From NCBI GenBank assembly GCA_004802725.1, contig SGPM01000008.1:62001-126000 (forward strand): a DNA stretch of 64,000 nt, written 5' to 3'. Of this stretch, positions 7,867 through 63,978 are shown in pieces. The translations under genes and the position numbers were made by a program. Under the pieces are notes generated by a model that had not been told where the DNA came from, did not search any database, and worked only from the letters and a program-made list of their open reading frames with translations. This DNA is from Antrodiella citrinella. Lineage: Eukaryota; Basidiomycota; Agaricomycetes; Polyporales; Steccherinaceae. Every line of letters begins with the position of its first letter. Position 1 is the first letter of the stretch.

Positions 7867-8126
7867 TGTATTAATGATAATAAAGTCAGACGGGGTTGTA
7901 TAGGTCTATGGGAAGAGTGCAAGGCTTCGAGCTTCGAGGACCGTCAATTGGCCCACGGAGATTGACAAATCAGCGTCTATTCAACGTGGCGAAGCAGACG
8001 CCCAAAAATTCTGCTCGATCCATTGAATTCCGGCGCGGCTCACTGAAGTACTGATACAAAACACACCACAAACCTCTCAATCCTTCTTCCAAGTTCATAT
8101 TCTCATAGGGCACCAAGGATTCGACA

Positions 8127-9605: not shown

Positions 9606-9685
9606 AGGCACTACCAGGGATCGAACCTGGGTCTTGGGAAAGTGTGAATCAGAATCCCAAGTGATAACCACTACACTATAGCGCC
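9606..9685 (-). tRNA. tRNA-Gln (anticodon CTG) with 8-nt intron
   Basis: Read on the minus strand, the acceptor stem GGCGCTA pairs with TAGTGCC (one G-T). The D arm contains GTGTAGTGGTTATCAC and the T arm is CCAGG-TTCGATC-CCTGG. The anticodon stem is TGGGA/TCCCA. The loop TTCTGA-T carries CTG at 9650-9652. It is interrupted after position 37 by an 8-nt intron (TTCACACT), the canonical 37/38 site. The discriminator is T and no CCA is encoded, as usual for eukaryotes. Internal A and B boxes are intact. Confidence 0.94.
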
Positions 9686-12749: not shown

Positions 12750-15700
12750 TTAGGGTGTTATCGTTTGCTCTGATTCCTCGTTGAAGATTTCTGGGGCGTG
12801 TTCGACGAGCCATTCGACGGAGAGGGCTTTGCCGGCCATGTCGCTGAACTCCATGGTGGTGTCCCGAGATCGCATGAGTGTCGCTGAGGTCAGCAAAACC
12901 GTCCGTCAGTCAATACATAATAATCACTTCAAAAAACTCACGTCCAAACACGACCCCGAGGTTCCTAGCGTGCATGAGATTGATATCACTTTTCTCACGT
13001 ACCCTGCAATGCCCATTTAGTTCGACGAACATACATTCAGATTCAAATGCGCCTCACCTGTGCAAATGGAGCATCAACGCTCGAGCAGTGTAATAATGCT
13101 CGCTAGGCAGCTCAGAAACGATCTGTCGCATCGTCTCCGTCTTGATCGTTGGCTCCTTGATGCTGGAAGCCTCGATGAATCTATCGTGGAGGTCGAACGT
13201 GAGCAACGGGTCAGGCATCTGCCTGAAGTATGTCTTCAGGACGGAAGTGATACTACAGATGTCGTTGAACTCGTCCGTGTCGCGCAAGTCGAACGCGTCG
13301 TAGTCACCCCTGTCGAACAGGTTGTTGATGACTTTGACTAGTCGCGTACCACCGCTCTTGCGATAGATGCCCTCATACTCGAGACCTGCCGTGAGGATTC
13401 AGTTATATGTATGTCACAGGAAGCGAGTTATGTATGCGTACCGAGGAAGTCAACTGCATCAATGCACTTCTCTACAATCACGGGGATAAGCCGTTGACTC
13501 GTCCTTGAGTCCGCGCGTACTTGCTCAGCAAGTTCACGTCCCAGAATAGATGGGTCTGGGAGGGTACATATGCATTGAGTAAAGAAAGTATACGCAACGC
13601 GTTTACAATGTACTCACAGTCTGGGACATTCGGCATTTGTGGCACGTCATCACGACCATTCGACTGCGAGCACGAAAGATGAACATGATGCACACAACGA
13701 GTATGCACAGCAATATTGCAGCCTACACAATCAAATCAATCGTTCAGCATCACCTCTCAAACTGTTCGTTGGGGCGAATAGACTCACGAGTACACCGGAG
13801 CTGCGACCCCCACATCTTGTCTCCACAATGATCGCACCTCTGCGGACGCAAGACGCTGATCTGCACGAACGTATGCTCCGCATGCACCTTCTGCTTCCCA
13901 CCGTCCGGCCACACAACAGGCACATGATCTTTCGGAGTCTTCGACCCGCCCCATTTCATACCAAACTTCGACACCTTATGCTGGGGCGTCGGCACGTCCG
14001 GAATGTCGAGTCTCTGCACCTTGTGGAACGACTTGGAATCGGACTCCTCGGTGGAGCCTGCGACGGAAGACGACAGCGAGGACGAGAGGTTCTGCAGCAT
14101 CCGGATCTTGTTCGCGGTGAGGTCGGCTTTGTTCTCGTGAGATGAGTCACTCGCAAGCTCGAAGTCTTGCGACTGAGCGGGACCGGACGCTTCCATCCGA
14201 CGGATGTACTGCGCGTTGAGCTGTGCCAACTCCTCGTTCCGGGCGTTGAGCATGGTCGTCTCTTCGAGGAACGATTCGCGGCAGGCTTTGAGATCCTCGA
14301 CCTCTCGGATGAGGGTTTCTCGCTCTTGAGTCAACGGAAGGAGCTGGTGTTCGTATTGGGACTTGATACTGTCGAAGCGCACTGAAAGAGCACGACCGAG
14401 CTTCGCTGGGGCATCGCCAGCGCTAGGAATACTATCCAGTTCCACAATCTGTCAGTGCGGTCAAAATATCAAATACCAGCAACACGCACCTCTTGTTGGC
14501 AGACAGCTCTTCTACCTCGGCCAACGTCAAGTCCCGTTCGACCTTCAGCTTAGACAGGTTACGCTCCAGCTGTGACAGACTGTCGCTCATCTTTCGAGTC
14601 CTCTCCCGCTGAGCCTCTTGCCGTTTCGACTCTCCAGAGATGACAGACAAACGAACAGCTTGACCGGATAGCAGAACACGTAGGCGGGTAACTTCCGCTT
14701 CCGCCTCCCGTCTCGCTTTCAGCTCAGCATCATACTCCGTCTGCGCGACAGTCAACCCATCCATATACTGCTGACTGGCCCTCTTCAAAGCCCGCAATAT
14801 CATCAGTCATGAAGTCTGCAGCACGAGAAAAAAGAAGCGGAAAAAAGGCATACCTTCATACCATCAAGCTTCTTCTTTAAATCATTCACCTCATCCTTGC
14901 GCTGATCCAGCAACATCAGGATAGCATCGACGAAATCAAGGTTCAGCTTGACGTGCGAGACTTTGCGCGCATTCGCGTCAGACACAGCCTCCTGCAGACG
15001 TTGCTTGACGAGATGCCCCGCATCAAGTCGGCCGTTGGGCTGAGCGGACGAGTCCGACGCTGTCATGCGGATCGGCGGAGCGGGTGCGCCACGATATGCC
15101 GAGTCGACTGACCGATCCCGCCCATCGCGGTCACGCTGCAGGGAGGGCAGGCGGTCGAGCGATGGTCCAAGCAATTTCGGCCGTGGGCGTCCCCTATCGG
15201 CCTGTACGTCGAGCCTGGGTACATCCTCTGATGAGCGTGACGATTCCGAATGCCCGTTGGGAATATCTGAGGATGTTCGGGATACGGATGAATTGTAATA
15301 TGTCGATGATTGGTTCAAAGACTGCGGTGAAGGAGAGTTGCTGCGCTGCGACGCTGGGTCCCGCCGGACAGTTTGATCCTGGTCGCCCTTAGCAACATTG
15401 TCGCGGCGTTTGACTGGAGTAGCATCATTGTAGTATGGGGTTTCCGAGCTGATGATCGTTATATCACTAGTTGGAGTGGAAACCTGCTTGGTATATGCTG
15501 GCGGTGTCAGTGTGGTATTCACGCTAAGCCCGTTAGGTCCTTCATTAGACACCTCCTTGAGAACTCGCATGGGTGGTTTCTGCGTAGACGGGCTCCCCAC
15601 GGACCTCAGTAAGTCTCCGAAGTCCGCACCACTCATTGAGAACCGGATGGGTGGCAGAGCAGGGGCGATGAATGTTGCATGCGAGGTCTGTTCGACTGGC

Positions 15701-45206: not shown

Positions 45207-47528
45207 TCAAGAGGGAACACCCGCAGGAGCAGAGTTCATGTGTGACTGATTGAACACCTTCAGCCACCCGTCTCCCATGTCTGACCTCAACGCCTCAATC
45301 CGCGCCCGGAACGCCTCAGCATCATCCAGCTGCTTTCCCACATCCTTCCCACTCTTCTCCGCCCCTGGCGGCTCATACACCGACGCAGATACGCGTGCAC
45401 GCCGTGCAGCAGACTTCATGGTGGCGGAACGTCTGCGGCCTGAGGACTGGATGTCGTCTTGAGGGTAAGACAAAAGCAACTCATCTACATCAGAGCGACT
45501 ATTCGTCGCTGGGCTGTATTCTGTATGGTGGCGACCATGACGAGACTTCGGCTTCTGTCGAGGCGACGACGGTCCGGCAGTCGGCGCCGGGGGAGACGAC
45601 ACATCCGCATCCTGGACAGTCGTCGTTGGCTTTGATGCTCCGGCAGGCGGCTCTGTCGATGCAGCAGGTGCTTTGAGCTCCTTTGGCCGCAGTACGGATG
45701 CCTTCCCGGGACTTGTAGCGCGCGCAGCAGCACTACTCGCCACATTAGAAGCAACGCGTGAATGTGATCCGCTCCTAGATCCACCAGTCTCGCTACCACC
45801 ATCCAGGTCAACGATCCGCTTGTTCTTCTTCTTGCGACCTCTGGCACCGACGGCAGAGATATGTGGTGATGCTGTATGGGAAGGTGGTAAAGAGGTCGGT
45901 GGAGATGTGTTCGGGCTTTCCTTCGATGGCGCCGTAACGGTATCTGTCGATGTCGACGCTGCCACTATCGGCGCCGCTTGACGTGGAGGGCTACTCACCG
46001 CCACCGCAGGAGGCGAGTATGCAGTCGAAACAGGTCTCGAGGACGTCATCTGTTCTGGCGGCGGCGAGGAGAGATACCTCTTCTCGTAGAATCCAGGCGG
46101 GGAACCATCCAGCAGCACTGTCTTCCCTTCCTTCAGGAACAGATCAAAGCACCGTATTCTGTACCCCTCCTCATAATCCACCAAGGGGTTGCCCTCTATC
46201 CAGACTTCCACAATATTAGGCAAAGCAGCCAAACGGCCCACTTCGGCGCTTTCCTCGACAACGTTGTGTCTCAGGTCAACGCGTTCGAGGGCACGCAGAC
46301 GCTCTAGACCGCATATTGACTCGAGTCTATTGCGAGCCAGGTTGAGATGAAGGACTTGCCCCAACATCGTGTATATGCCCAGAACAGAGTCAATCATGTT
46401 GTCCGAGAGGTTGAGGGATACGAGGTTATACAGAGCTGAGAGCCCCGACGGGACAGATACCAGGAGGTTGGAGGACAGATCTAGATGTGTGACTGAGGTA
46501 AGGTATTGCATGGGCGTGGTTGGAAGGAAAGTGAGAGCATTGTCGGCCAAGGATAGATATCGTAGGAAAGCCCACTTGTGTGACGGAAGAATTGGGGCAG
46601 TTCCGGAGGGTGCAGTGGAGTTCGAGGAAATATGGGAGGCACTATCTGCTGAGACTGGGATTTCTTGCGTAGGGGTATGCGGTGTATCCTCAGCATCCTC
46701 TGGCACTGAATCAGGTAATCGTGTGCCGTAGAATGACCCTTGTCGCGATGGTGGTGCTCGAATGGGTCGTGTCCCGTTCACTTTCCCCTCTCTCCGAGCC
46801 TGATCGTCCAATACAGCTGACATGAATATGTCGGACACATCTTCCAAGCCACTCCTCTTCACCGTTAAGCCCCACAGACTTTCCGCTAACCTGTCCCATC
46901 CCAAAAGGGTTCTCGGATCAATATCCAAGCATTCGAGAGACTGGATCGACTTGAAGGCGTCGAATGGCAGCGCGTTCTCGTTGGGAGACTCGTTCGCGAG
47001 TTCTGCTATCAGTCGAGACTCTGGTGCATGCAAAGATATGGCAGGCAGCTTGGTGAAGCAGCTGTAGATATACTTGAGCTCGACGTCAACGGACGCCGGT
47101 TGTCTACCCCACCAGCCTGCGCCTAGCGACAGACGGGACACAGCGGAGAGAGAGGTCGCGAAAGACATGAGGGACAGTGCATCAGACTTATCTGCACCGA
47201 GGAATAGATTGACATAGCTCATGGGGCGCGAGGGACTGTCGACTTTGACATCCAGACTGCCAACGTCTATCCCCAACGCCTCCATTCGCATGAGGAGATA
47301 GAAAAGGTGGTGTGTATCGAATGACAGGACGACCGGCTTGACCGACGATGATGGGCCATTGGCTTCTGGTCCACCGAACCATGCGAAGGGATTGAGAATA
47401 GAGCTGCCGTTGTCTGTGGCTTTCGTACGACGTTTCCGCTGGTAGGCCGCGGCTGCTAAGCCCTGCTCATTAGCGCGGATGTGAGTCGCGATGCGTCGTA
47501 TATAGTCGTCCCCGGTTTCGTGTTCCAT
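45207..47528 (-). CDS. Leucine-rich-repeat protein with long basic disordered tail
   Basis: A single exon of 773 residues, unusual beside its intron-rich neighbours. The start at 47528 (MEHETGDDYIRRIATHI) is preferred over open sequence upstream because that sequence lacks protein character. An N-terminal domain (SFDTHHLFYLLMRMEALGID) precedes four or five LRRs of the SDS22 style: LRYLSLADNALTFLPT, VTHLDLSSNLLVSVPSGL, LVSLNLSDNMIDSVLGI, VLHLNLARNRLESICGLERL and LERVDLRHNVVEESAEV. A cap follows (WIEGNPLVDYEEGYRIRCFD). The C-terminal 300 residues are Ser/Pro/Ala-rich with basic patches (RGRKKKNKRI). The order resembles STK11IP/nischarin-like LRR proteins, but I cannot assign it firmly. Confidence 0.88.
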   Translation of the reverse strand: MEHETGDDYIRRIATHIRANEQGLAAAAYQRKRRTKATDNGSSILNPFAWFGGPEANGPSSSVKPVVLSFDTHHLFYLLMRMEALGIDVGSLDVKVDSPSRPMSYVNLFLGADKSDALSLMSFATSLSAVSRLSLGAGWWGRQPASVDVELKYIYSCFTKLPAISLHAPESRLIAELANESPNENALPFDAFKSIQSLECLDIDPRTLLGWDRLAESLWGLTVKRSGLEDVSDIFMSAVLDDQARREGKVNGTRPIRAPPSRQGSFYGTRLPDSVPEDAEDTPHTPTQEIPVSADSASHISSNSTAPSGTAPILPSHKWAFLRYLSLADNALTFLPTTPMQYLTSVTHLDLSSNLLVSVPSGLSALYNLVSLNLSDNMIDSVLGIYTMLGQVLHLNLARNRLESICGLERLRALERVDLRHNVVEESAEVGRLAALPNIVEVWIEGNPLVDYEEGYRIRCFDLFLKEGKTVLLDGSPPGFYEKRYLSSPPPEQMTSSRPVSTAYSPPAVAVSSPPRQAAPIVAASTSTDTVTAPSKESPNTSPPTSLPPSHTASPHISAVGARGRKKKNKRIVDLDGGSETGGSRSGSHSRVASNVASSAAARATSPGKASVLRPKELKAPAASTEPPAGASKPTTTVQDADVSSPPAPTAGPSSPRQKPKSRHGRHHTEYSPATNSRSDVDELLLSYPQDDIQSSGRRRSATMKSAARRARVSASVYEPPGAEKSGKDVGKQLDDAEAFRARIEALRSDMGDGWLKVFNQSHMNSAPAGVPS

Positions 47529-47804
47529 GGCGAGGAGAATGAGACGAGAGGTGACAGAAGCCCTCGCGATAAAGAACTCGTGTGCAGGCCACGACGACCA
47601 AGACAGACGAGAGCACAAACACACCGGAGCTGCTAGGAGCGGCAGCACGGTTCACCCAAAGTAGTAAGTGCACGTGCTCCGGATATTGCCGATGGTCATG
47701 GGAGTACGCGTCGCTCTCTCCCGCTCATTCTACCTTCCGTTTCTCTCGTTTAGGCCCGTCCTTCTACTTTTGTTTTCTCGCACAGACCAGCTATCGGAAT
47801 AATA

Positions 47805-49366
47805 ATGAAGATCACAATCAAGACTTTGCAGCAGAAAGTGTTTCTGGTATGTCGTTTTGACTTCTTCAACCACTTCTGTGTGGCGCATTGTCTGAGCATC
47901 CGCGTTATCTTTGTACTTTGATTTAGCTCGAAGCTGAAGGATCGGACACCGTTGCCGATCTCAAGCAGAAGATCCAAGAATCTCAAGGTCACAGCCTTGA
48001 GAGCCAAAAGATCATCTACTCCGGTTAGGATCTGAACATCCGCGAATGCTGTTCCATATCTGACTTGTTGTGTTACAGGCAAAGTTCTGCCAGACACTAA
48101 GACTGTGGAGTCATGTAACATCAAGGAGAAGGATTTCCTGGTGCTGATGGTCGCAAAGGTGACTCATTCATCTCGAAATTGTCTGTAGTTCCAGCCAGGA
48201 CTAATGCTCGCACCAGCCGAAGCCGACACCCGCCGCGTCCACTAGTGCTGCTGCCACATCCAGTGCACCTGCTGCCCCGGCCGCTGCTGAGCTTGCCGCG
48301 CCAGCGCCTGCAGCTTCAAGTACACCCGCTGCCCAGCCTGCACCCCCGAATGCACCTATTCTGACACCCGCACAAGCCGCACCCGTGGAAGCTCCTGCAG
48401 CTGCAGCACCACCTCCCGCATTTGGCGACATGAGCGCGTTTGTTACTGGAGACCAGCTGCAGTCCACTGTCCAGAACATGATGGAGATGGGTTTCGAGCG
48501 TGATCAGGTTATGAGGGCTTTGAGGGCTAGCTTCAACAACCCAGATCGGGCTGTGGAATATCTGTTCAACGTTAGTCTCAACATCTGAGACATATCTTCA
48601 GCTGCTGATGTTTCAGCTGAAATACAGGGAATCCCGGCTCATCTGGAGCAAGTCGCTGGAGGCGGGGCCGCTCCTGCTGCTGCTGCCGCCCCTACTGGAG
48701 CCGCAGCTGCCCCTGCTCAACCCGCTGCTGCCGCCCCTGAACCAGCAGCACAAGCAGCTGCTGCACCCGCTGCCGGAAATGCTCCTCAAAATCTCTTCCA
48801 AGTATGTATCGTGCATCATCTTCCGCATACTGATCATTCTTGACGCAGTTTTCACAGCTCGCTCAACAGCAACAACAACAGCAGCCACTGGCTGCTGGTC
48901 CTCGCATGGGAGGAGGTGCTGCCGGTGCGATGCCCAACCTTGAGGCATTGGCCAACAGCCCTCAGATCCAACATCTCCGTCAAGCGATTGCCCAGAACCC
49001 CGAGATGATCCAGCCTATGCTCCAGCAGCTTGCCATGGAAAACCCTCAGCTAGCGCAGATGTTCGGCCAGAACCCGCATGCACTGCTGACGTTGCTTGGT
49101 ATCGGCGTTGGTGGTGAGGCTGGTGATGACGATGAAGCTATCCCCCCGGGTGCTCAAGTGATCAACGTTACGCCAGAGGAGCAAGAGGCGATTCAGCGTG
49201 TGCGTATTGATTTGTACTCCTTCATTTGTCCGTACTCATGCACGATTTGCAGTTGGAGGGTCTCGGCTTCCCAAGACATATCGCCATCGAGGCGTACTTC
49301 GCTTGTGACAAGAACGAGGAGATGGCCGCAAACTATTTGTTCGAGCACGGATTCGAAGATTCGTAG
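47805..49366 (+). CDS. RAD23: UV excision repair / proteasome shuttle protein Rad23
   Basis: N-terminal ubiquitin-like domain [14 protein letters not shown]...[15 protein letters not shown] (first intron 47847-47926). It is followed by an Ala/Pro linker, then UBA1 ([20 protein letters not shown]...[11 protein letters not shown]) and a second Ala/Pro/Gln linker with a Q7 run. The XPC-binding domain ([20 protein letters not shown]...[11 protein letters not shown]) comes next, and the C-terminal UBA2 ([14 protein letters not shown]...[13 protein letters not shown]) closes the protein. The order UBL-UBA-XPCB-UBA is diagnostic. It delivers ubiquitinated clients to the proteasome and stabilises Rad4 in nucleotide excision repair. 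It is divergent from the LRR gene over 276 bp. Confidence 0.96.
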
Positions 49367-50793
49367 ATCGTCAAAGAGCGCCATGCGACTTCTCAGTCTC
49401 TGAACGTCGGATTGCGGAACACGTTTGCAGTATTAGGTACTTCTGTATTATCTCTCTTCGGAGGACTGTTCAGTACAATATAATGAATTGCGATTGGCAT
49501 TTTTCACGTGCGATGTATGAGAGGCAGCGAGTACGACGATGATGTCACAGCATGCAGATCGTCACTGAGATTGCCGGTATGTTTGCCAGCCGGTTGCCGG
49601 TGACTCAGAAGATCGATTATAATTTGAAACGTCCGATCCTGAGGACTCCGACAGCCTTGTCACTGTCAGTGCAAATGTCTGCAAGTTTTGCGCGCAAACT
49701 GCATGCGCAGTCGCATCTTTGTCTTCTTAGACTTCTACATCCGTGGCAGACTGTGTAAGAACTCGAGCTCAATTATTTTCTTTTCTCTGCGCCAAATTAG
49801 ACATTCGTGCGAATGAATCATGTATAAAATCCGAGGCCCGGGCTGCTGCGGAAAAGTGGTATCATACAGGTGAAGGAACCCTCAGCGGACGGATTCTATT
49901 GAAAGTAGGCTGGTGTTTGTACTGAACGAGCGGGTACATAACTCAAAATTCACGTGAGAGGATAGCAGGAATAATCAAGAGAAACAATAGAGGTGGTAAT
50001 ACATACTCAATTCCCGTCGTAGAGAGGAGAACGAGACGAGAGAACTTCAATGGGATGGCAACAGGAACACACGGGGGCGCAAAGATGGGTATAAGGGATG
50101 TAGACTCGATTGGGTGTTCCCGAACTCGTNCACGACGAAGGGGACAGGCTTAGGCCAACTTACAGAGCTACAGAACTAATAGAACTATGTGAGAAGTGAG
50201 AAAGAAACAGTTTGTGATGAGAATCGGAACGAAATAAAACAATGAGGGGAATAGGTCGATGGGAGAGAGAAATCTATGCTGAAAGCGCAAGCAACGCTAC
50301 GAGCGGTGCGTCAGAGGCCGAAGGGAGAGAACGTCAAAGCATCGCCGCGTAGCTATATACTGCGGGGAAACACAGAAAACGAGGCACGAGGACTTAGAAA
50401 GGAAAACGAAACAAAGGAGAACGCGAATGCGCGGCGTCGCGGGACTCGGCGGGAGGGGACCGTCGAGTCATTGACCCACTGCATTACCACACCCCCAACA
50501 CAATGCACTGATCATTGCTATAGTTCAAGTCTCCATGAGAGGCATCTCGTCCTTGGTCGACTCCGCGACTTGAGGGAGAGGCAATTAAAAGAGAGGGGAC
50601 AGTTCACACCCGGGTCGACGCAGAAGAACGCCTCCGAGGCCGTGACTACGGGTAAGGGTCGCTGACCCATTTCTTACTCCGATGATTTATTTTCCTTTCC
50701 TTCTAATCGACTCGATTCGCGCTACTTGCAGGTTGTGACTTGGACTGATGTCGACAAACTTCAATCCGACTTTCAGAGGAAGAGTGCAAACGA
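49367..50793. other. Intergenic, Rad23 3' side to the secreted-protein cluster
   Basis: About 1.4 kb without a gene I can support. The plus open frame 50276-50665 is a purine-rich translation with no domain. One N at 50130. Confidence 0.55.
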
Positions 50794-50797
50794 AAGG

Positions 50798-51512
50798 CTA
50801 GTAGAAATTTCTACAATCCCAACTGATATCGACATGAGTGGTAACATCGATCCTGAATGAAGTCCGACAAGTCCGTTCTATAGAGTACTGCATCCGGGGG
50901 TTTATGGAGCGTGTATCCACCAAAACCGTCTCGGAGCTGTCGCCGTTAACGCCAACGGCATCACCGCTGATGGAGTGACCACCATCTTCGGCAGTGTCTA
51001 AGAGTGTACGGTCAGGACAGACTCCCAATGTTAGCAGAAAACAAGAAGACTTACTCGTTCCACCGTTGAGGATCTCGCTCTCAGCCGCTAGCAGAGTTGA
51101 TGACAGAACCGCCTCGGGCGTCGCCAGAGTTTCCGGAGCGTGCGTTTCCGCCACCGGGACCGTCTCCGCCGATAGCGTCTCCAGAGGTGGAGGAACCACC
51201 GTTTCCGGCAGTGTCTACAGATGACGAGAAGAACAATGTCAGCCAAGCTAGCTTATGCGATTAAGGGGGAGACGACGTACTACTGCCGCATTCGTTGTCG
51301 ATTTCACCTTCGCCGGTGGCCTCGTTGATGACGTCGCCACCTTCAGTGTTGCCAGAGCTGCCCGACTGAGCGCTACCCCCGTTGAAGTTGTTGAAGTTTT
51401 GGAACTCGGCGGCCTGGCGAAGGGCACCGATGTCAATGCGGGGGGCGGGGGCAGCAGCGACGGATGAGGCCGCAGTGACCATCAGGAGGAAGGTGAAGAC
51501 TGAGAAACACAT
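50798..51512 (-). pseudogene. Copy A of the modular small secreted protein family, truncated by a frameshift
   Basis: Exon 1 (51281-51512) encodes a signal peptide (MCFSVFTFLLMVTAASSVAA) and the first repeat unit (GGSAQSGSSGNTEGG...NEATGEG). Exon 2 begins at 51214 and reads NTAGNGGSSTSGDAIGG, then GGGNARSGNSGDARGG...NSASG. A stop (TGA, 51083-51081) then follows, so the readable protein is 121 residues. Against copy B the base order right after the SASG codons has one extra nucleotide. Removing it would restore the family pattern up to the donor at 51054. A third exon relic (5' end at 50997) reads NTAEDGGHSISGDAVG, then an unrelated tail to a stop at 50798. The gene may still make a short secreted protein. 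Promoter and signal peptide are intact, so 'pseudogene' is provisional. Confidence 0.75.
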
Positions 51513-51530
51513 TTTGACTGAAGTCGAGGT

Positions 51531-51632
51531 GGTACGAGTGAAAGATGTGAGGGGTGAGGGGTGCGTAGGAGATTAGAGGTGCTTGGATGACGAGACTTTG
51601 GAGGTGGTGGTCGACGAGGTTTTTATACCTGA
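51531..51632 (-). promoter_or_regulatory. Conserved TATA and 5' leader block of copy A
   Basis: TCAGGTATAAAA on the minus strand at 51632-51621, 109 nt before the ATG. The leader element TCACATCTTTCAC-TCGTACC at 51550-51531 is also found in copies B and C. Confidence 0.75.
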
Positions 51633-51754
51633 GGTAGTATGTGCGCGACCTGTCAGAGGTTTGAACATAAGAGTTAGACTCCGACAAACGTCCTGTGCCC
51701 CTCCATATTACTGAATCGGTAAGCCGCGGTGCTGAGCAAGCAGCCAGTTTGTGC

Positions 51755-52040
51755 GTACCTAGGAACACACGGCGAAGGAAGGGCGGAAGCAAATCGGAGA
51801 GTCGAGTGGCACCTTCTTCAACCATGGCAAGCGGAAACGATGAAAAGAGAATCGCAAAACAACGACCACAAAATGCGCATCTGCACATATTGTGCTTTTC
51901 AGTCTCTCGAGTTGACGGTCGACCATTGCAAGATGGGTACAATAGGCATATTGGCAATGAACGAGCTTGCCAGCGAAGAATGGATCCTTGGTCTAGGTGA
52001 CAAGACAACCGTCGGTCCAGATTGTGATCGAGGCGGCATT
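51755..52040. repeat. Upstream segment of copy A duplicated upstream of copy B
   Basis: Two ordered anchors match the copy B upstream region. A 'aggaacacacggcg...gcggaagcaaa' block near 51760-51793 matches 53478-53520. CGGTCCAGATTGTGATCGA at 52013-52031 matches 53812-53830. Spacing is roughly conserved (about 250 against 330 nt). Confidence 0.55.
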
Positions 52041-52646
52041 CCCAAATGTAGTGGGGCTGGGGTTGAGCAGGTGCTCAGACGCAGACGCAAAGTCGAATAC
52101 GGTTATGCACTCCTTCAATCCTCGGAATGAAGGCTCGACTTCTCCTGGTTTCGGGATTCCATAGAGTCCATGTCGGCGACGTTGGCAGAGCGGTACGTAG
52201 TAAGAAGAGCTTGAAGTAATGAGTAAGGTAAGCAGAGGATGGATGTGGTGGTAGTAGGTACTTAGGTAACCGATTCACGATCAATATACTCAATGACAAC
52301 GATCTGCTTTGTACGGAGATGTCCGAATGCGACTGTGGCGATGCGCTTACGTAACTCTACACTTCAGTCCTCCATCCGGCGGCAGGTACGTAGCCGCAGT
52401 GACCAACCCGAGGACGAGGACAAATTCAGTCGCACTCGCTTGAGATCGGACGGGAAAAGTGTGAGTCGAAATGAACGATAGTAGAGATTGATACAATGCT
52501 ACTACGATCCGACGTCGATACAGAGGTGACGTTAATCCCCGCAACACCAAAAGAAATCGTCCATGAAGTCCGTAAAGTCCAGGATACAGAGTACAACATC
52601 CGAGAAGCTCCAGAACATGCCTCCGAGTTGGGTAACACCCGTCCGC
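52041..52646. other. Spacer between copies A and B
   Basis: No gene seen. The part next to 52646 is the 3' UTR of copy B and keeps weak similarity to the end of copy A (GGACTT..CGGACTTCAT in both). Confidence 0.5.
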
Positions 52647-53214
52647 CTACTTCGCGTTTCCGCCAATGGCATTGCCGGTGGTAGAGGTACCGCCGTTTCC
52701 AGCAATGTCTGCAGGTTCATCGCAGTCAGATCGCAGGTTCAGATACTTGGGATAGTGACAGCAGAAGACTCACTTGCGCCACCGCTGAAGACCTCGCTCG
52801 CGCCGCTGGCACTGTTGATGACAGACCCGCCGTTCGCGTTGCCTGAGTTGCCCGAGCGTGCGTTTCCGCCGCCGAAGCCGTTTCCAGCGACAGCGGCGCC
52901 GGATGCGGAGTAACCACCGTTTCCGGCTTTGTCTAGCAGGGGAGAACGAGGAAAAGTCAGTGAGCTAGTAGGTGAAAGATGAGAGAGGAAGAGGGCGTAC
53001 TGAAGCCCCAGTTTTTGACGGTACTCTCGCCAGAGGCCTCGTTGACGACGCTACCGCCGTTGGTGTTGCCAGAGCTGCCTGACTGAGCAGAGCCAGCTTT
53101 GAAGTTATTGTATCCTCGAGCGACGACGTCGGGCTCGGGGGCGGGGGCGGGGGCGGCGGAGACGAAGGTGGCCGCGAGGACCATGACGAAGGATGCGAAG
53201 ATGGAGAAACGCAT
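52647..53214 (-). CDS. Copy B: small secreted Gly/Asn/Ser-rich repeat protein
   Basis: Three exons (53001-53214, 52774-52932, 52647-52708), all introns phase 1, give 144 residues. The signal peptide MRFSIFASFVMVLAATFVSA is followed by a Pro/Ala stretch. Unit 1 is AGSAQSGSSGNTNGG...NEASGES. Unit 2 is NKAGNGGYSASGAAV...GGGNARSGNSGNANGG...INSASGAS. Half-unit 3 is NIAGNGGTSTTGNAIGGNAK and stop. The mature chain has no cysteine, no catalytic motif and few hydrophobics. It looks like a structural or surface protein rather than an enzyme. No family is recognised. It is the best-preserved member together with copy C and shares their promoter block. Confidence 0.85.
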
Positions 53215-53231
53215 TTTAGCTGGATGAGAAG

Positions 53232-53310
53232 TGGTACGAGGTGTGAAAGATGTGATATGAGGTGGTGGGATGAAGAGACTTGGAGGTGTCGATGGGGCTT
53301 TTATACCTGA
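53232..53310 (-). promoter_or_regulatory. Conserved TATA and 5' leader block of copy B
   Basis: TCAGGTATAAAA at 53310-53299 (minus), 85 nt before the ATG, identical over 12 nt to copies A and C. The leader CACATCTTTCAC...CTCGTACCAC at about 53254-53232 matches the other copies. Confidence 0.75.
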
Positions 53311-53469
53311 TGATCTCCAGTATACGCGTATGCGTGAACATGGTCGGCGATGAGGGGTAAAGAGCTAGGAGCATCGTTGGACCATGTCTAGACTCGACCA
53401 ATGTCTTGTTGCTCCTGATTTTTCGCTTCTGAACTGGAAAGATCGACGAAGAAGCATACTACTTGTCTT

Positions 53470-53840
53470 AATGAATCCAGGAACACGCGCCGTAGTGTCA
53501 ATGAACGAGAACGGAAGCAAACCTGGTTGATGTTGTGAGACAGGCTGGTAGTGGGGTAGTGGGGTCGTCAGTGAGTAGTGGACACCTCAGCTGCAAATGA
53601 CAAGTGGACTGACCCATGACATGAACGAACGTTGTAGGAAGCAGAGAGGTTCAGGCCCGAAATACGCCTTAGTGTAGCGTCGATAACGCTCGCCTCGCCT
53701 TGACATACAGAAACCCATGTACGCCATATAACTTGTCGAGTTCCCTAGAATAACGGTCGTCGTTACAAGATTGGTGTAGTGAGCTAGACGCCGACGCCAA
53801 GAGAGTGAGATCGGTCCAGATTGTGATCGAAGCGGTAAAT
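53470..53840. repeat. Upstream segment of copy B duplicated from/to copy A
   Basis: Holds the counterparts (near 53478-53520 and 53812-53830) of the two anchors described for 51755-52040. This indicates that promoter and upstream sequence were duplicated together with the gene. Confidence 0.55.
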
Positions 53841-56430
53841 CCGAATATGGCAAGGCTAGGCCACCCCGTAGTAAACTATAGTATTACCTCGGACTAAAAT
53901 TGAGGTGAGGAGACTTAGGACATGTCAAAAACTTGCTTAGAGCAAAATGAATTGCTATTCCAAATATGTTAGACATTGGAAGGGGTATATCGTGCAGGGG
54001 GAAAGGGGGTAACAGGGGGAAGGGTATGGTTCCATACCCATCATAACATACCAGCAACACCGAAGCTCACGATTGCAACGGGGAGTCTCTCCGGCGAACT
54101 CTTGAAACGGAGATTACGGCGACCACGACAAATAAAAACAGCAACCAAGGCGATCGGTAGCTGGGCAAGTACGAGGGCGGAAGAAAAGTGACATCCGGAA
54201 GACCATAAACGCAGACGCTAGCCTCTCTCCGAGTGAGAGTCTCGTTCGCCGGTGATTCGGGCTTGATTAACCCCGGTAGAGGTGTCTTTGAGCGTGTCAC
54301 GAGGACGTCGTCGCACATCGTAGCGTAAGCTGTCGGTGTTGCCATGTCAGAAAGCAGATGACGCTACACAGTTCGGCCACGTACATTGCACTCTCGGTGG
54401 AATCTCAATCCAATAATCCCCAGCATATTCTCGAGAACTCTCCTGGATGTGGCACTGTAAACACGCTCGGATAACGTCGACCGGAGCGGTAGTACATGTG
54501 CAGTATGGGAGGCCGTTGCACAGCTACAGGTCGGGGTCAGTCACGCCGTGTGGAGACGAGAAGAGGCTATGCGCACCAACTGAGCCTGGAGTACGGGGTC
54601 ACAAATGCTTCCACACTGCGGAGAACGAGCATGAGCGATGGAACTGGAAGAGAGCCACATAAGAACCGACTTGGCTTGTCGTGGAGTTGATCGAAGCCGA
54701 TGCTCCGCAGGACATGAGTTCAACGGAGTATAACGTCGATGGAGCACCAAGCACGACTTGGAAAGCTGTGAGCCTTGGTCAGAATCACGTCGACCCCATG
54801 ATATGAGCGGGAACAAATACCTGCAAAGGTAGCCACTCCAGCGAGCAACTCGATAGGCAACATCTTGTCCAAAAGTCAGGTAGGATGCGAGTTCACGTTC
54901 ACGTTCCTCGCGATAGAAAGATTCGAGTGAGGATGGGAGGGAGGAAGGAAGACGCCATTTTCACAATTGGAGGGTTTTGAAGCTTGAGAGCGAGTGGCTC
55001 AGGATGATCGAGTGCGATGGCAAGACAAAAGAAACAATTAGGACGTCGCTTACATAACCATCAATGCAATATTGCAACGGTCAGCAGACCCGCAACCACT
55101 TGTCGCCCCCACAGTCCACTCATCTCATCCAAACAATACAACTCTGTTGCTACCTCTCGACAGAGACTTGAAAAAAGAGACTTGATTTCTGATTGTTTCG
55201 AGTCGCCTTGGTCGTGGTAGTCATTCAGATGTCGCTTTCACTTGCGCGAGAAGGACTCGCGTTATTATCTCGGTTCCTATGTTCCTTTACAATTAATCAT
55301 TTGATATGCTACTTTGCTTTGAATACTGCGGTATCGAGACGTGGTGTGCAGCAGATCTGTGTATTCGAGATATTGACCTTTTCACATCTAGCTTCGGGAG
55401 ACATGTACACAGTCGCGGGCACTGCGCTTCAACGTAAGATATGGCTCGTGGATTCAGAAATCGCTTTGATCGGGAGGCACTGGCTGGAACCCGTACGAGG
55501 TTATGGTGATTTGGTCTGTTCCTCGTATCAGATCTTCCTTCGTATGACAATGACTGGTCTCGCGGAGTTTGTGTTCTCTATTCGTCGGCGCAAGCCTCTG
55601 TGTTCGAGCCGGGACCTCAGGTGAGTCATAACTATTCGCGACTCTATCTGAATTCTAGATTTAAACCTCCACTGTGGAAAGACGACGCGATTGAAATTTC
55701 GGAAGTCGCTACATACTCAAGTCTTTCAGCGACCGATAATCTCAGCAGCACATCGCTTCCGCGAACAATCCTGGGTTGTATTTTGTACAGATCAGTACTA
55801 GTGTTATCCTTCTACCAGAAATCTCCGCAGATACGTCTTTTTGGTTTTGCTTCCTGAGTCGTCGCGCTTACAGCGTATGTAGGTCCGACGTATGCGATAT
55901 GTTTCCGTGCCTTCCAAAGACTCGTTTGTACGGGGCGACTGCAAGGACCGGCTCACGCTGTTGACTTGACTAAGACTTGGCGTGGATTGCCTAGGGCCTG
56001 GACTTTCGGCTTAGTCATCTATTTGTGCCTATGATGCATCGGCTTCTGCGGGGTTGCCTAATTCATGCGACCACTGGCCTCGGCCTGTCGGAGTCAGTCG
56101 GACGACGTAGTACCATGCTGGGACCAGATCACTCCAATTCTAGCCTTCGTCACAGGTGGCGCATCGCGAACAATCTTCACGTACGAATCGCGATATGACA
56201 TCGCTGGCGCACGTCCATAGTGACTTTAAGTGAGCAATGGAAACGCGTACTGTAGCCGAGTTTTTTCGACTGGCAGCAATCCGAGTCAGCGCGCGAGTAT
56301 GATGCTGACTTTGGGACGTTACAATATCAATATATCTGTATTGACTTATTTTCTTCACATGCTATTAACCAAGCTATATGATACCGAATGAAACACCAAC
56401 GCAATGTCGTCGACATCCAGAGGCTGTCGC
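53841..56430. other. 2.6-kb region without a supported gene
   Basis: Candidates looked at were a minus frame 54067-54345 (92 codons, ATG at 54345, C-terminal hydrophobic segment PWLLFLFVVVAVISV) and a plus frame whose first ATG is at about 55229. Neither has a recognisable domain, convincing splice partners or promoter. The region may hold eroded mobile or duplicated DNA, but I found no terminal repeats. Confidence 0.45.
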
Positions 56431-57395
56431 TCATGCGGATACACGGATCCTCTCAGCAAGACCCGCCTTGATGCCGGGGATCTCAAGCAGCTTCTGGTGC
56501 CACCTATTACGCAGCGTCGCGAGTCAGTATGTGCAACATGTCAACATGAGTATCAGAGCCAACTTACTTGTAAGTAGCAGGGAACTCCTTCTCAAAGTTG
56601 AAGCCCTCGCCGGCGAGGTGGGCCGCGCCGGTGTTCCATCTATGAGGCCCGTAAGTACATCCCAAGGGCATGGCAGGAGGAGGCGAGAACTCACGAAACG
56701 AACGACAGATCGGCGATGGTGAACTTTCCAGCGGCGAGCCACTCTTGCTTAGATAGCACGATTTCAAGGACACCCAAGACACGCTTGATTTCACTCTGGT
56801 ATCGCTCAATGGCAGAGGGGATCTTCTCGGGATGGAAGTTGGAGAACCAAGCGGCCTGGCCGAAGTACGGGCTGCGATAGAATGATCATCAGGGACTAGA
56901 ATTCCAAGGGATGGTGTAAGAAGAGCGTGAGCTACCCTTGACCGGAGACCTGGAAGAAGAGCCACTGGAGGACCTCGGTCTTGCCCGCTTCGTCGGTTGC
57001 AATGTACTTGTGAGCGGTGTCGTATTTGGACTCGAGGTAGAGCAGGATAGCACCGGATTCCCTATGTATGTAATATCATGTCAGACGGGGCTATCGGTAT
57101 AACGCGACTTGGGGGGGTACGTACCAGACGGTGAAGTCATTGTTCTTGTGATCGACAAGAGTAGGGACGCGTCCGTTGGGGTTCACTTTGATGTAATCAG
57201 GCTGCTTGTGCTCGCCGGTCTTTAAGTCGAGGTAAATGGTCTCGTAGGTGAGACGAGCTCGTTCAGGAGGAAGGCGACCTTCCTGTAGCAGGACGACTTC
57301 AATAAAAGTCCGTAATACGTATGTATACGTAAGACTGACCAGCCGTTGGGACCACTCTTGTGCGAGTAGAGAGTGAATTGCTTTCCGTGAGACAT
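56431..57395 (-). pseudogene. Ure2p-type glutathione S-transferase with apparent 1-nt frameshift
   Basis: Exon 1 (57340-57395) reads MSHGKQFTLYSHKSGPNG. A 57-nt intron (57339-57283) joins in phase to WKVAFLLNEL, the expected start of the thioredoxin-like domain. After NEL the frame is lost. The following LTYETIYLDLKTGEHKQPDY lies one frame over, because only two bases (57254-57253) stand where a Gly codon is expected. Downstream, NPNGRVPTLVDHKNNDFTVW, ESGAILLYLESKYD, YFGQAAWFSNFHPEKIPSA, FTIADLSFV and WHQKLLEIPGIKAGLAERI are all well preserved with correct splice sites, so decay is very recent or the base is a sequencing error. If intact it would be a glutathione-dependent detoxifying or protein-repair enzyme. 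Confidence 0.82.
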
Positions 57396-58391
57396 TGCGG
57401 GTTTTTAGAGGTGGTTGATAGAAGGGACTGCTTGGATGGGGATGGAAGGCGAAAGAAAGACGGTTCATAAAGTAAGAAGAGATCTCAGCTCCCAATGTCT
57501 TTATACTCATTGGCGTCCCGATGGAAATGAGATGAGGGTCTAGCTTTTACGACGCTTCTGTGAATGCGTCAGAGTTGTATATCCCGAGAATCGCTGTAAA
57601 TCATCAGTTTAATCAGCTCAGTACTTTCGACTGTAGCTCTACCCAGCTTTGGTCAAGGCGTTACGTGATGGTATTTGCGTGTTCCAAGTCATCGATGCAT
57701 CGTCATCAGTCTAGACTCTACACGATCGACCCCACCGTTTACGGGGATCATTTCTCTCTCAAAAAGAGTTCTTGTTGTTCGCAGTAGTGACTGAACCGTA
57801 CTAAAAACCTGCGTCGTGGGTCAAAGGTGTGCGTATATACTATACTACGAACCTGCGTCGTCGTGGCCCCTAAAGGAGACCTACAATGGGCGCTAATCTG
57901 CCGAGAGTGGGAGATTAAGACTCCGACAGAGAACTTCGTTCAACATTTCTTACTATGTTAGAGATGTTCGGCTTTCGTATACTTCGGATTTCCGTACCAT
58001 CCTTTCCATCAATTATAAACTGCATAAGCACCGGAGTCAAGTTCCGAAACTTGAAAATAAACTTATGGAACTGGCATGTCTCTCATTTGATGTCTGCCGT
58101 GCCGTCTCGTACCTATACTACCAACTGACGCAAACAAACCCAGATCCGTCGATCCGTCGATGCTTACGCCGGTGACGAGCTTACAGCGATTCGAGTCAGT
58201 TCAACAAATCCATATAGAGAAAACTATTACAGTAGAACCCTGCAATGTTAATCCCTACAATATCATATGAAATAGTTCAATCAGCCAACAAAGATCGTGT
58301 TCGACGAAACGACAAAGTCCAAGGATCCTCAAGAAAAGTGTCTCCAAGGAACCATCTAAAACCATTTATCCAAGGAACCATCCAAAACCGT
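57396..58391. other. Intergenic between GST and copy C
   Basis: GST promoter on the left, copy C 3' flank on the right. Two related words (acctgcgtcgt, near 57808 and 57851) occur 40 nt apart. No gene seen. Confidence 0.5.
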
Positions 58392-58938
58392 TTACTCGTC
58401 ACCACCGTTACCGCCAATGGCTTCGCCGGTGGTAGATGTACCTCCGTTGCCAGCAGTGTCTGAAAAGTATACCGTCAGAACATGGTTCCGATGGTTCTAA
58501 TTAATTGATAATACTTACTTGATCCAGCGTTGACAATGACACTCCCGCCACTGGCGTCGTTATCGACGTCGCCGCCGTCGGCATCGCCGGAGTTTCCAGA
58601 GAGCGCCGATCCGCCATACCCTCCATCGCCGCCATTTCCGCCCACAGCACCTCCAGACTCAGAGTAACCGCCGTTTCCGGCTGTGTCTACAGGTGGCGAG
58701 GACAGTGTCAGTCAAACCAGATAATGTAAAGGGGTGACAACGTACTATCGCCCAAGTTGAAGATTGCACTCTCTCCGGAAGCCTCGTTCGTGACATTGCC
58801 ACCGTTAGCGTTGCCAGCGCTGCCCGACTCAGCATTACCTCCGTCGCCGGTGTACCAACGGCGATCTGGACTGGGGGCAGCAGCGACGAAGGTCGCCGCG
58901 ACGACTATGACGAGAGAGGCGAAGACTGAGAAACGCAT
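58392..58938 (-). CDS. Copy C: small secreted Gly/Asn/Ser-rich repeat protein
   Basis: Three exons (58746-58938, 58519-58686, 58392-58459), both introns phase 1, give 142 residues. The signal peptide MRFSVFASLVIVVAATFVAA is followed by unit 1 GGNAESGSAGNANGGN...NEASGES. Unit 2 is NTAGNGGYSESGGAVGG, then a longer Gly-rich insert, then SALSGNSGDADGG...NDASGGS. Half-unit 3 is NTAGNGGTSTTGEAIGG ending GGDE. The exon borders are at the same positions as in copies A and B. Unit 2 here is Asp-richer, making the mature protein clearly acidic. Its function is unknown; secretion is well supported by the leader. Confidence 0.85.
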
Positions 58939-58955
58939 TTTGGATCAAAGCGAAG

Positions 58956-59054
58956 TGGGACGAGTGAAAGATGTAAGATTGAGTGTCGCGTTGGTAGTCC
59001 AAGGTATTTGGAATGATGAGATTTCGGCCTTGTCGACGAGGCTTTTATACCTGA
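58956..59054 (-). promoter_or_regulatory. Conserved TATA and 5' leader block of copy C
   Basis: TCAGGTATAAAA at 59054-59043 (minus), 105 nt before the ATG. The leader element TTACATCTTTCACTCGTCCC at about 58976-58957 matches copies A and B. Confidence 0.75.
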
Positions 59055-59887
59055 GGATCACCAGCGTATGTACACGATTTGTCGGCAGCAGAGACATAGG
59101 AGCATGGTCAAACAAGGCATCGATGCTGTTAATGTCCTTTCCCCTCGTTTCTGTAACGGCGAGTAGCAGATCTCAGCACGGCGCGCTTGTGTGATGATAT
59201 TAGTTAGGGAAACACACCGAATATTTGGAATTGACGGATGCAAAATCCGAGGCCCACCTGCAAGCAAAGTGGACTGAAACAAATGGAAAAGGCAATGCGA
59301 TGAGCGCAGAAGGTCGCTGCCAGTGTTAGTGACTAGGATTTCAAACCTGCTAACTTGCTGCCTTTTCTTATGTGCTGCCACGCTATTTCACGTATCACGC
59401 GTAGATTAGCTGGTCCGCAGAGGTGTTGGCATCCAAGAACTAGGATGTAAGGCTTGTTCAAGTTTGTAATAGGTAGCCGGTGGTAGAAGACCGCGTTTCG
59501 GAGATGTCCGATCGCTTCCGACAGCATAAGCGCTTAACGGATTAGTGACCGCAGTATCGACGCGGAGAGTGGACCTGGAGAGATCTGACTCCTAATTATC
59601 GAGCTGATATCAACTTCAAAGAAAGCTTGCCAGTACTTGCCAATAAACTTGCAAAACGAAGGATGAAGGTGCTACTACGACCAGGGACAGTTGATCTCCA
59701 TGTCAAGTCTGAGTTCATACTGTAGATACATCGTCCACTGGCAATCCGAGAACTCCAGGAATATATGCTTCCGATTCAGGAACCGAGACACTCGCAGCGG
59801 TAATGACCTAGCGGCCGTTTCGTCGTGGCCGTCGCCGCCACAACGCGTGAAGAGGTATCGCAATGTAACGAGACTCGGTGAACTATT
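59055..59887. other. Region between copy C and the copy D relic
   Basis: No supported gene. The frame 59675-60085 (minus) crosses the relic exon but its flanks are not protein-like. Confidence 0.5.
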
Positions 59888-60035
59888 TTCACCATCGACG
59901 ACCTCGCCCTCACCGTTGGAAGTATTGATGGCAGACTCCCTGTTCGCGTTGCCGCTAGAGTGGACGCACGTTTTCGCTTTCGAAACCGACCCGTCGATCG
60001 CGTTGCCGGAGCGGGAGGTGTCAGCTCGGTTCAAG
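59888..60035 (-). pseudogene. Copy D: relic of the unit-2 exon of the same family
   Basis: Minus-strand translation gives TSRSGNAIDGSVSKAK, then SSGNANRESAINTSNGEGEV and VDGENS. This aligns in order with copy B exon 2 (ARSGNSGNANGG, INSASGASEV). At base level the stretch AGCGGCAACGCGAACAGG matches the GGCAACGCGAACGGC of copy B. No signal-peptide exon, promoter block or following GNGG exon is present, so this is a degenerate fragment. Confidence 0.6.
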
Positions 60036-62393: not shown

Positions 62394-63978
62394 AAGAGCC
62401 ACGAGGCCCTGGAGCTGAGGAGAGTGTCAGTGCAACTCGAGGACCAACCGGAGTGAATACGAACGATTTCTGCACCATAAACGCGAGCTCTTTCCTGAGA
62501 GAAGCGGCCGTACCGGACCAACTCGCTGCGCAAGTCTCCTCCCGCGTAGAGTGGCTGAAGATGACACCGTTAGTTGAAAGTGGGCACTGGTACTCAGATT
62601 GAAACTCACCATGATGAAATAGAAATTGTCGGTATCACAGAACGACCCGAGCAACTGCACAACACCTGGAGCGCCTTCGCAACGGCGGAAGGTGAGCTGT
62701 TCGGCCACGGCCATGTTGACGTAGTACTCCTCTCTCTCCCGTTGCTGCGCCGCGGTCATCCCCGCCCTCCAAAGAGGCTTGCGCATGACTTTCATCGCGC
62801 ACAAGGCACCAGTCTCTCTGTACTGCACCATGTGTACAGTACCAAAAGTGCCGGACCCAAGCTTCTTGACTGACTGGAAGTCCCGTAAGGCGATGATTGC
62901 AAGAGGGACGGGTGGTGGAATAGCGAAGCACTGCGGCTCAGAGCGGTAGACCACACGGGTAGCATTGGCGCGTCGGGCGGTGAAGACTTCATCTCCACCG
63001 CGGAGAAGGGCAACGGCGTCGGCGCCGGGCGCGATGATAGGGAGGAGATACTCCGCACAAGACTCTGGAGTGTCGCTCACGTAGACAGGATCCGGTGTGA
63101 CCTCGTCAAAATCGCAGTCAGTCGAGGTGCCATGGAAATACTCTGCAGTGGAGGGCAAGTAGGGCGGGATACTGTGAATGCTATCGGATGCGACGATGTT
63201 GACTAATGTCCTGGACATGTCGGGTGTGCCCCCGAGAACATAGGGCGGCAGTGGAGAGAGTCGAGCAGTTGGAACTTCGGTTTGTGTATCAGAAAGTATA
63301 CCGTGCGGCTGAATGGGAGCAGCGACCCCCAAGTCGATGGATACAAGGACATCAGACCCTTCACCTGCGAGCTCGTCTTGTCCGAATGAGACGGCAATAT
63401 GGATGGCGTGCTCGGGTGGAGGCAGAGGAATGCGCTCGAGAGACTGGCTGGTGACTGTCAGACTTGAAGTGATGGCCTTGGTAACTGTCGCGGTGTCGCC
63501 ATGCTCGATCCCAAGGATAGTGGTTAAGTCCTTGATAGTGATCGTTCCAGTGCGCAACTAACACCAGAGAGTAAGACGGAGAAGTCCTTCCACCCGAATG
63601 ATGAAACTCACCGTTTGATCCATCCAGTCTGCCAACACACCCTGGCCCGGAGGAGGACGGATGTTGAGGAATCCCGGATCGTGGAAGGCCTCATCCATCG
63701 CTTCAAAAATCTGCTCCTCAGCCTTCAGGACTTCGGTGTGGGACTGAAATACTGCGTTAGCCAACGGTCATAGATAATAATTGCGTACATACAGTGATCA
63801 GGGAGAGTCGCTGGGGAGGAGAGAAAGATGCTGGCAAGGACGTGGGTCTTCTGGTCGGCTGCTCAGAATGACGGTCAGCCCGCCACTTCAAGAAAAGCTG
63901 AAGGGTCTACTTACTTCGATGTGTATAATATTGCTGGATTTAGGTTTGAAGATACGGAGTTTGAAAGAAAAAGCCATC
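60691..63978 (-). CDS. Serine/threonine protein kinase with long Ser/Thr/Pro-rich tail
   Basis: Start at 63978 (MAFSFKLRIFKPKSSNIIHIE, then a GTAAGT donor). The N-terminal 350 residues include HTEVLKAEEQIFEAMDEAF and DWMDQTLRTGTITIKDL, with no named domain. The kinase domain starts FQSVKKLGSGTFGTVHMVQY. It continues with CAMKVMRKPLWRAG (ATP Lys), FCDTDNFYFIM, HERGIIHRDLKPENILID, HLVLADLGLARAF (DLG instead of DFG), YCGTRAYMAPETHTSS and PVDIFAMGTIFYEMLFG. The C-lobe end HPLFKGINWDILKTSQLPAS resembles AGC/PKC-type kinases. An insertion (CEAEKAAYDLLRMNCEGYGD) sits between DLG and the APE motif. About 240 disordered Ser/Thr/Pro residues follow to the stop at 60691. Total length is roughly 950-1,000 residues. 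Substrates are unknown. Confidence 0.88.

What the first reader, a model, noticed from the sequence alone, without database searches (positions are those of the whole stretch)
50798..60035. Undescribed four-copy family of small secreted proteins built from repeated phase-1 exons
Two intact genes, one frameshifted gene and one relic lie on the same strand within 9.3 kb. Each gene is a signal-peptide exon followed by exons that restate one unit: (N/D)xAGNGGxSxSGxAxGG...GGNAxSGxSGNAxGGxVxNxASGxS. Exon 1 ends in half of the unit, exon 2 holds a whole unit and exon 3 the first half again. Every intron is phase 1 and falls at the same point (codon A|AC before the unit), so an exon can be added or lost without a frameshift. 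Mature chains are almost cysteine-free, rich in Gly, Asn and Ser, and of similar size (about 120-125 residues). I know no named fungal family with this pattern. Structural surface coat, glycosylated matrix or effector are all possible.
Basis: partly seen in the sequence, partly recalled or inferred. Interest (0 to 1): 0.88.

Follow-up and report, generated by a model that had tools for sequence, protein, structure and literature searches.

The report
Secreted glycine-asparagine repeat protein family
A wood-decay fungus carries a family of small secreted glycine- and asparagine-rich proteins for which we found no name; the genes are built by repeating one exon, and the longer members look designed to be cut by a protease into similar modules of about 110-130 amino acids.

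Summary
Two intact genes (B, C), one broken gene (A) and a short relic lie on the minus strand at the stated place. The organism is Antrodiella citrinella: public protein EUX98_g907 is identical to copy A up to its early stop. All 32 introns in 10 family genes modelled from this genome are phase 1, mostly A|AC, and dN/dS is below 1 in all six gene pairs tested. The family is larger than reported: about 14 loci here and 43 database proteins, the named ones from 15 species. Pfam gave nothing for B and C.

The chain is in essence (C-half, N-half)n, with introns inside that pair. Dibasic (Kex2-type) sites in the repeat region fall almost only in the linkers between N-half and C-half, never in two neighbouring linkers, and precede a C-N-C-N module of about 109-134 residues. 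Window genes are single modules. I propose secreted extracellular structural modules, matured by Kex2 in the longer members. Function is inferred: no expression data, weak fold predictions. AlphaFold models resemble springtail antifreeze proteins, but the defining G-x-x repeat is not met. Longer members work like Kex2-processed repeat proteins (KEPs); the window genes are not KEPs.

The parts
53001..53214 (-). Gene B exon 1: signal peptide, short stretch with Tyr and Phe, C-half
52774..52932 (-). Gene B exon 2: whole unit (N-half, short Gly linker, C-half), 159 bases
52647..52708 (-). Gene B exon 3: terminal N-half and stop
58746..58938 (-). Gene C exon 1: signal peptide, RR site, C-half
58519..58686 (-). 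Gene C exon 2: whole unit, 168 bases
58392..58459 (-). Gene C exon 3: terminal N-half and stop
51281..51512 (-). Gene A exon 1 (start of public protein EUX98_g907)
51081..51214 (-). Gene A exon 2 up to the early stop at which the public protein ends
50936..50998 (-). Gene A: remnant of a terminal N-half beyond the early stop
   Evidence: 16.4 bits
59897..60011 (-). Relic: degenerate piece of a unit exon

Best explanation
The genes belong to an unnamed family of secreted proteins of Polyporales and at least one other agaricomycete. SHOWN from sequence: the chain is a string of two half-repeats, C-half (like GGNAxSGNSGNANGGSVxN) and N-half (like xAGNGGxSxSGxAxGGN), in the typical member starting with C and ending with N. 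Phase-1 introns fall between C-half and N-half, so an internal exon (N-linker-C) can be duplicated or lost and the chain remains (C-N)n. Long members carry dibasic sites in every second N-to-C linker, and many members carry one before the first C-half; they mark modules C-N-(short Gly linker)-C-N of about 109-134 residues. A, B and C are laid out as one such module. INFERRED: long members are polyproteins cut by Kex2 in the secretory path into similar modules of roughly 10-13 kDa, each starting with a short tail that often holds Tyr or Phe; single-module genes make the same product after removal of the signal peptide (and of a short propeptide where a basic site precedes the module, as in C). 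INFERRED, weaker: the modules have no enzyme function; they are compact, non-helical, cysteine-poor building blocks that assemble in the cell wall, on the hyphal surface or in the extracellular matrix, much as the Kex2-released Rep1 peptides of Ustilago do.
For: Intron phase 1 in 32 of 32 introns of 10 modelled genes, A|AC in 25. Half-repeat order and linkers. Among 53 proteins (10 own gene models + all 43 database proteins found) [KR]R occurs 29 times in N-to-C linkers (737 residues), 0 times inside halves (4760) and once in C-to-N linkers (1538; in P0040, a metagenomic frame that seems to read through an intron there); the others are before the first half (23 in 2852), between two C-halves just before a C-N-C-N module (6), NN 1, after the last half 7. 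Of 38 adjacent linker pairs 0 are dibasic-dibasic, 31 mixed, 7 have none. All 9 proteins with three or more mapped linkers and a dibasic site place it in every second linker (C117, C157, C357b, P0002, P0007-P0011; C357b after leaving out one zero-length linker that looks like a profile artefact). Dibasic linkers (25, KK counted too) are 11-33 residues long except one of 4; of the 66 others 63 are 0-8. The 11 modules cut out after a site measure 109-134 aa (P0010's was ended by me where its repeat ends). Single-module P0033 and P0035 also carry a basic site before the module. At least one Kex2-type P domain in this genome, C21. Selection against amino-acid change. Mature chains of 9 of 10 models lack Cys and all are 22-35% Gly. 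In several metagenomic frames the C-to-N spacer is lengthened by what looks like a read-through intron at the same place.
Against: No RNA or protein evidence for any copy. B, C124, C107 and C57 and the public fragment of A have no [KR]R, so cleavage cannot be general; of the window genes only C has one. The proteins are related, so the counts are not independent events. Dibasic linkers are not richer in aromatics than the others (0.165 against 0.168 of residues, 77 linkers). The order C-N is not perfect: C357a lacks an N-half in exon 3, C246a is irregular, and the profile makes some double calls. The structural role rests on composition, secretion and absence of known domains. Folds are weakly predicted: P0007 mean pLDDT 76 with the five models from 76.0 to 41.5, P0017 pLDDT 49.6. 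The signal peptide was judged by eye.
Confidence: 0.5

Rival explanations
1. Ice-binding proteins: the modules fold as polyproline/polyglycine II bundles like springtail antifreeze proteins and protect hyphae on frozen wood.
Confidence: 0.08
2. Functional amyloid: half-repeats stack as beta-solenoid coils like CsgA or FapC and form surface fibrils.
Against: Both structural matches are weak (Foldseek prob 0.04 for FapC); no sequence match in the PDB with profile A3.
Confidence: 0.2
3. Secreted interaction proteins (antimicrobial, or acting on the host fungus Fomitopsis pinicola, since A. citrinella is considered a mycoparasite).
For: Small, secreted, multicopy; A. citrinella is considered a mycoparasite associated with F. 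pinicola (passage in PMC12878558).
Against: The family also occurs in Trametes, Phanerochaete, Gelatoporia and in a congener of the host, Fomitopsis serialis; dN/dS below 1, no cysteine scaffold.
Confidence: 0.12
4. Dikaritin-like precursors: the Tyr-holding stretch after KR is a core peptide that UstYa-type enzymes cyclise.
For: KR followed by Tyr/Phe in several members (KRSYDGYT, KRGYPFFPG, KRQYGSYA); 15 UstYa matches in the genome.
Against: No UstYa match lies beside a family gene; the nearest is about 70 kb from copy A on the same contig, and the other six contigs with matches carry no family locus that I found. The stretch is short and variable, not flanked by sites on both sides, and the 100-residue repeat part is what is conserved.
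Confidence: 0.03

Closest known systems
Kex2-processed repeat proteins (KEPs), including Ustilago Rep1
   Same: Signal peptide, repeats, dibasic sites between repeats in the longer members; Kex2-type P domain present in the genome
   Different: Module is about 109-134 aa and is itself four half-repeats; only one own gene (C157) seems to reach three modules; window genes are single modules; one unit per exon with introns out of register with the cut sites
Springtail polyproline-II antifreeze proteins (PDB 7jjv, 2pne)
   Same: Gly-rich, small; best structural match of the predicted models
   Different: No G-x-x tripeptide periodicity, almost no cysteine; activity untested
Bacterial functional amyloids CsgA/FapC
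   Same: Gly/Asn/Ser-rich repeats (recalled), predicted short strands
   Different: No sequence relation found; different maturation; fibril formation untested
Hydrophobins
   Same: Small secreted fungal surface candidates
   Different: No cysteine in B and C; the eight-cysteine pattern (recalled) is absent
Progranulin-type modular precursors
   Same: Secreted chain of modules that may be released by proteolysis (abstract start in search listing, PMC4527844)
   Different: Cysteine-rich animal modules, unrelated

Membership tests
KEP | N-terminal secretion signal | tested here: met
   hydrophobic N-termini in 10 of 10 models, judged by eye, no predictor run
KEP | at least three repeated motifs separated by KEX2 sites (minimum of the survey PMC6339444) | tested here: not met
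   window genes are single modules; two-module members C117, C357b and P0007-P0011 also fall short; C157 alone appears to have three
KEP | released peptides detected | not testable with these tools
   needs mass spectrometry
Polyproline-II bundle antifreeze proteins | G-X-X tripeptide repeats, 3-4 per helix (passages of PMC10235112) | tested here: not met
   fewer such Gly runs than shuffles in both sets; no positive control could be run
Polyproline-II bundle antifreeze proteins | PPII bundle fold | tested here: inconclusive
Hydrophobin | eight-cysteine pattern (recalled) | tested here: not met
   0 Cys in B and C
Dikaritin precursors | UstYa/Yb genes in the cluster | tested here: not met
   none of the 15 listed matches is adjacent
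Any Pfam family | profile match | tested here: not met
   0 families for B and C at E <= 1; 1 of 20 module sequences with a weak hit, Ten_N, E 0.034
Functional amyloid (CsgA/FapC type) | cross-beta fibril | not testable with these tools
   only weak structural matches

The most novel reading that the evidence does not exclude
A new class of self-assembling extracellular fungal material: a four-half-repeat, cysteine-poor, Gly/Asn-rich fold made as Kex2-cut polyproteins, encoded by an 'open' exon design in which introns sit inside the repeat pair, so copy number can change freely while every product keeps whole modules.
Probability: 0.3. Interest if true: 0.75.

Novelty: new variant of a known kind. 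Interest (0 to 1): 0.52.

Why it matters
Many small secreted proteins of wood-decay fungi belong to no family (from general knowledge). This work defines one by three marks (half-repeat profile, phase-1 exon rule, alternating Kex2-type sites), finds it in 15 named species, and gives a product (a module of about 110-130 residues) that can be expressed and tested directly for wall, interface, ice or fibril properties. It is also a clear case in which exon borders are out of register with the protein modules and yet keep them whole.

Tried and rejected
C568:21408-21626 (E 0.017) was dropped: the unit profile found nothing there. C246b and C246c were left out of the gene models because their first exons could not be placed. 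A first C157 model with wrong donors had stops and was replaced; the accepted model uses one GC-AG intron. The first C357b frame was wrong and corrected. Three KEP papers were searched by term in the main text: PMC9769878 (glycine, Gly-rich, GGNA, asparagine, intron, exon: 0, 0, 0, 1, 1, 0), PMC6339444 (glycine 1, in the abbreviation list; basidiomycota 34; intron, exon, Polyporales 0), PMC7329392 (glycine, GGN, Polyporales, intron, exon: all 0); none of the passages seen describes this family; supplements were not seen. Paper searches whose listings (titles and abstract starts only) named no such family: (0 papers); held open-licence library only. hhalign of N-half against C-half gave probability 22 percent over 9 columns, so their relation to each other is only suggestive. 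PDB sequence search with the family profile: 0. A control search with two springtail AFP fragments from a paper found no PDB chain, so the G-x-x test has no positive control. BFVD: no match with E <= 0.001. Two scripts failed on option errors.
Full report
WHAT IS THERE. The window is G000:C581:62001-126000. Its copy A encodes, up to its early stop, exactly the public protein EUX98_g907 of Antrodiella citrinella, 121 aa (P0001), a polypore of the Steccherinaceae. B, C, A and the relic all lie on the minus strand. B and C splice into 144 and 142 aa; all four introns are phase 1 with an A|AC join. A has the same first intron but meets a stop in exon 2, where the public protein also ends, and a weak N-half remnant lies beyond it. 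The published A. citrinella assembly comes from Ion Torrent reads (PMC12878558, section 7 read whole); the genome held here is probably that assembly or a filtered form of it (30.0 Mb in 602 contigs here, 33 Mb in 1228 contigs in the paper), so I do not claim that A is a true pseudogene. The relic is supported by blastn (50.0 bits against a shuffled best of 31.0) and by profile (8.8 against 2.3 bits).

THE FAMILY IN THIS GENOME. Two protein searches gave 29 and 25 exon matches (lower bounds, as the tool says). Grouped and checked with a unit profile they make about 14 loci: A, B, C and the relic on C581, one each on C124, C107, C57, C117 and C157, two on C357, and three on C246. Ten were modelled to full length. 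All 32 introns are phase 1; joins are A|AC 25, A|AT 5, A|TT 1, C|CT 1; 31 are GT-AG and one, in C157, is GC-AG; lengths are 52-74 bases. The models chose splice sites with the repeat in view, so the rule is partly built in; but the exon frames themselves fix the phase. Internal exons are 111-213 bases, except two of 369 and 363 bases that hold two units each (apparent intron loss) in C357b and C246a. In a tree of 19 unit exons from 9 genes (the double exon of C357b and all of C246a left out) the three of C57, the three of C117 and the five of C157 each form a clade (support 0.97, 0.965 and 0.705), while those of C357a do not; inside C157 the short-linker exons 2, 4 and 6 group together (0.879): within-gene exon duplication or homogenisation. 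Six pairs among B, C, C124 and C107 give dN/dS 0.57 (B and C124) and 0.24-0.32 (the other five), which points to selection on the protein.

THE PROTEIN UNIT. Profiles for the two halves show a chain that typically begins with a C-half and, where complete, ends with an N-half; C-to-N spacers hold the intron, and N-to-C linkers are variable. Exceptions: C357a lacks an N-half in exon 3, C246a has neighbouring N-N and C-C, six Trametes/Fomitopsis/Daedalea proteins have an extra C-half, and the profile makes some double calls. Because exon 1 supplies a C-half and the last exon an N-half, any number of internal N-C exons leaves a complete (C-N)n chain. N-half and C-half share SGxAxGG, but profile comparison gives only 22 percent probability over 9 columns; that the halves are homologous is my inference.

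KEX2-TYPE SITES. In 53 proteins (10 models and all 43 database proteins) [KR]R dipeptides fall as follows: N-to-C linkers 29 in 737 residues, halves 0 in 4760, C-to-N linkers 1 in 1538, before the first half 23 in 2852, after the last 7 in 969, between two C-halves 6 in 280, between two N-halves 1 in 33. The 25 linkers with a dibasic pair (KK counted too) are 4-33 residues long, the 66 without 0-18, 63 of them at most 8. No two neighbouring linkers both carry a site (0 of 38 pairs; 31 mixed, 7 without any). The nine proteins with at least three mapped linkers and a site all place it between two-unit blocks (C357b after leaving out a zero-length linker). The blocks cut out after a site measure 109-134 aa in 11 cases. 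B and C without their signal peptides are of the same size (about 120 aa). Sites are often followed by Tyr or Phe, but the fraction of aromatics in dibasic linkers (0.165) equals that in the others (0.168) (77 linkers), so this is not a distinguishing mark. Against the model: four intact own genes (B, C124, C107, C57) and the public fragment of A have no [KR]R. The proteins are related, so these counts are not independent events. A Kex2-type P domain is present (C21).

DISTRIBUTION. Three searches of 5.8 billion proteins returned 6, 31 and 17 matches, 43 distinct. Fifteen species are named: Antrodiella citrinella, Steccherinum ochraceum, Panus rudis, Meripilus lineatus, Rhodofomes roseus, Fomitopsis serialis, Daedalea quercina, four Trametes, Phanerochaete carnosa, Gelatoporia subvermispora, Cytidiella melzeri and Cristinia sonorae. 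I looked up only Antrodiella (Polyporales) and Cristinia (Agaricales); the others are Polyporales from memory, and the unnamed metagenomic proteins are unassigned. Candidates were capped at 7984 and 7985 in two searches, so absence elsewhere is not shown. One relative (P0037) carries the database label 'Cell wall protein'; no basis for it is given. No Pfam domain is precomputed for any of the 43.

MECHANISM. Most likely: secretion, Kex2 cutting where sites exist, and use of similar compact modules of about 10-13 kDa as extracellular building blocks. Secretion (by eye) and modularity are read from sequence; cutting is inferred from a strong positional pattern; the structural role is the weakest step. 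Few N-glycosylation sequons (12 against 42.8 expected) argue against an N-glycosylated matrix protein; O-glycosylation was not tested.

KNOWN OR NEW. KEPs are described by signal, internal repeats and KEX2 sites between repeats, with three repeats as the least allowed in the original survey (passages of PMC6339444). The window genes fail the count; the longer members work like KEPs. The three KEP papers searched by term do not mention this family in the passages seen (supplements not seen). I call it a new variant of a known kind.

Noticed in passing
window 57094-57510 (minus), probably on to about 56400: A glutathione S-transferase gene (GST_N match) lies between copies B and C; its further exons were seen only by eye.
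   Followed up: partly
window about 54530-54870 (minus): By eye, a possible small secreted protein gene unrelated to the family; not modelled or searched.
   Followed up: no
window 45210-47648 (minus), 48840-49400 (plus), 62430-63557 (minus): Neighbours: leucine-rich repeat match, XPC-binding domain, and a protein kinase match below Pfam's cut-off (28.8 against 31.7 bits).
   Followed up: partly
G000:C581:41834-42933 and 14098-14307: UstYa (PF11807) matches on the same contig, about 70 kb and more from copy A; 15 matches listed genome-wide.
   Followed up: partly
L070:4310-4257 (minus): A GC-AG intron in C157 that keeps the phase-1 A|AC join.
   Followed up: yes
L066:4199-4567 and L067:2840-2478: Double-length exons with two units, apparently intron loss, in C357b and C246a.
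   Followed up: partly
P0015, P0016, P0034, P0036, P0037, P0038: A Trametes/Fomitopsis/Daedalea subfamily has an extra C-half before a dibasic site and then C-N-C-N, with a spacer of the GMPTLMN type.
   Followed up: no
window 9606-9685 (minus): A tRNA gene, the only Rfam match in the window.
   Followed up: no
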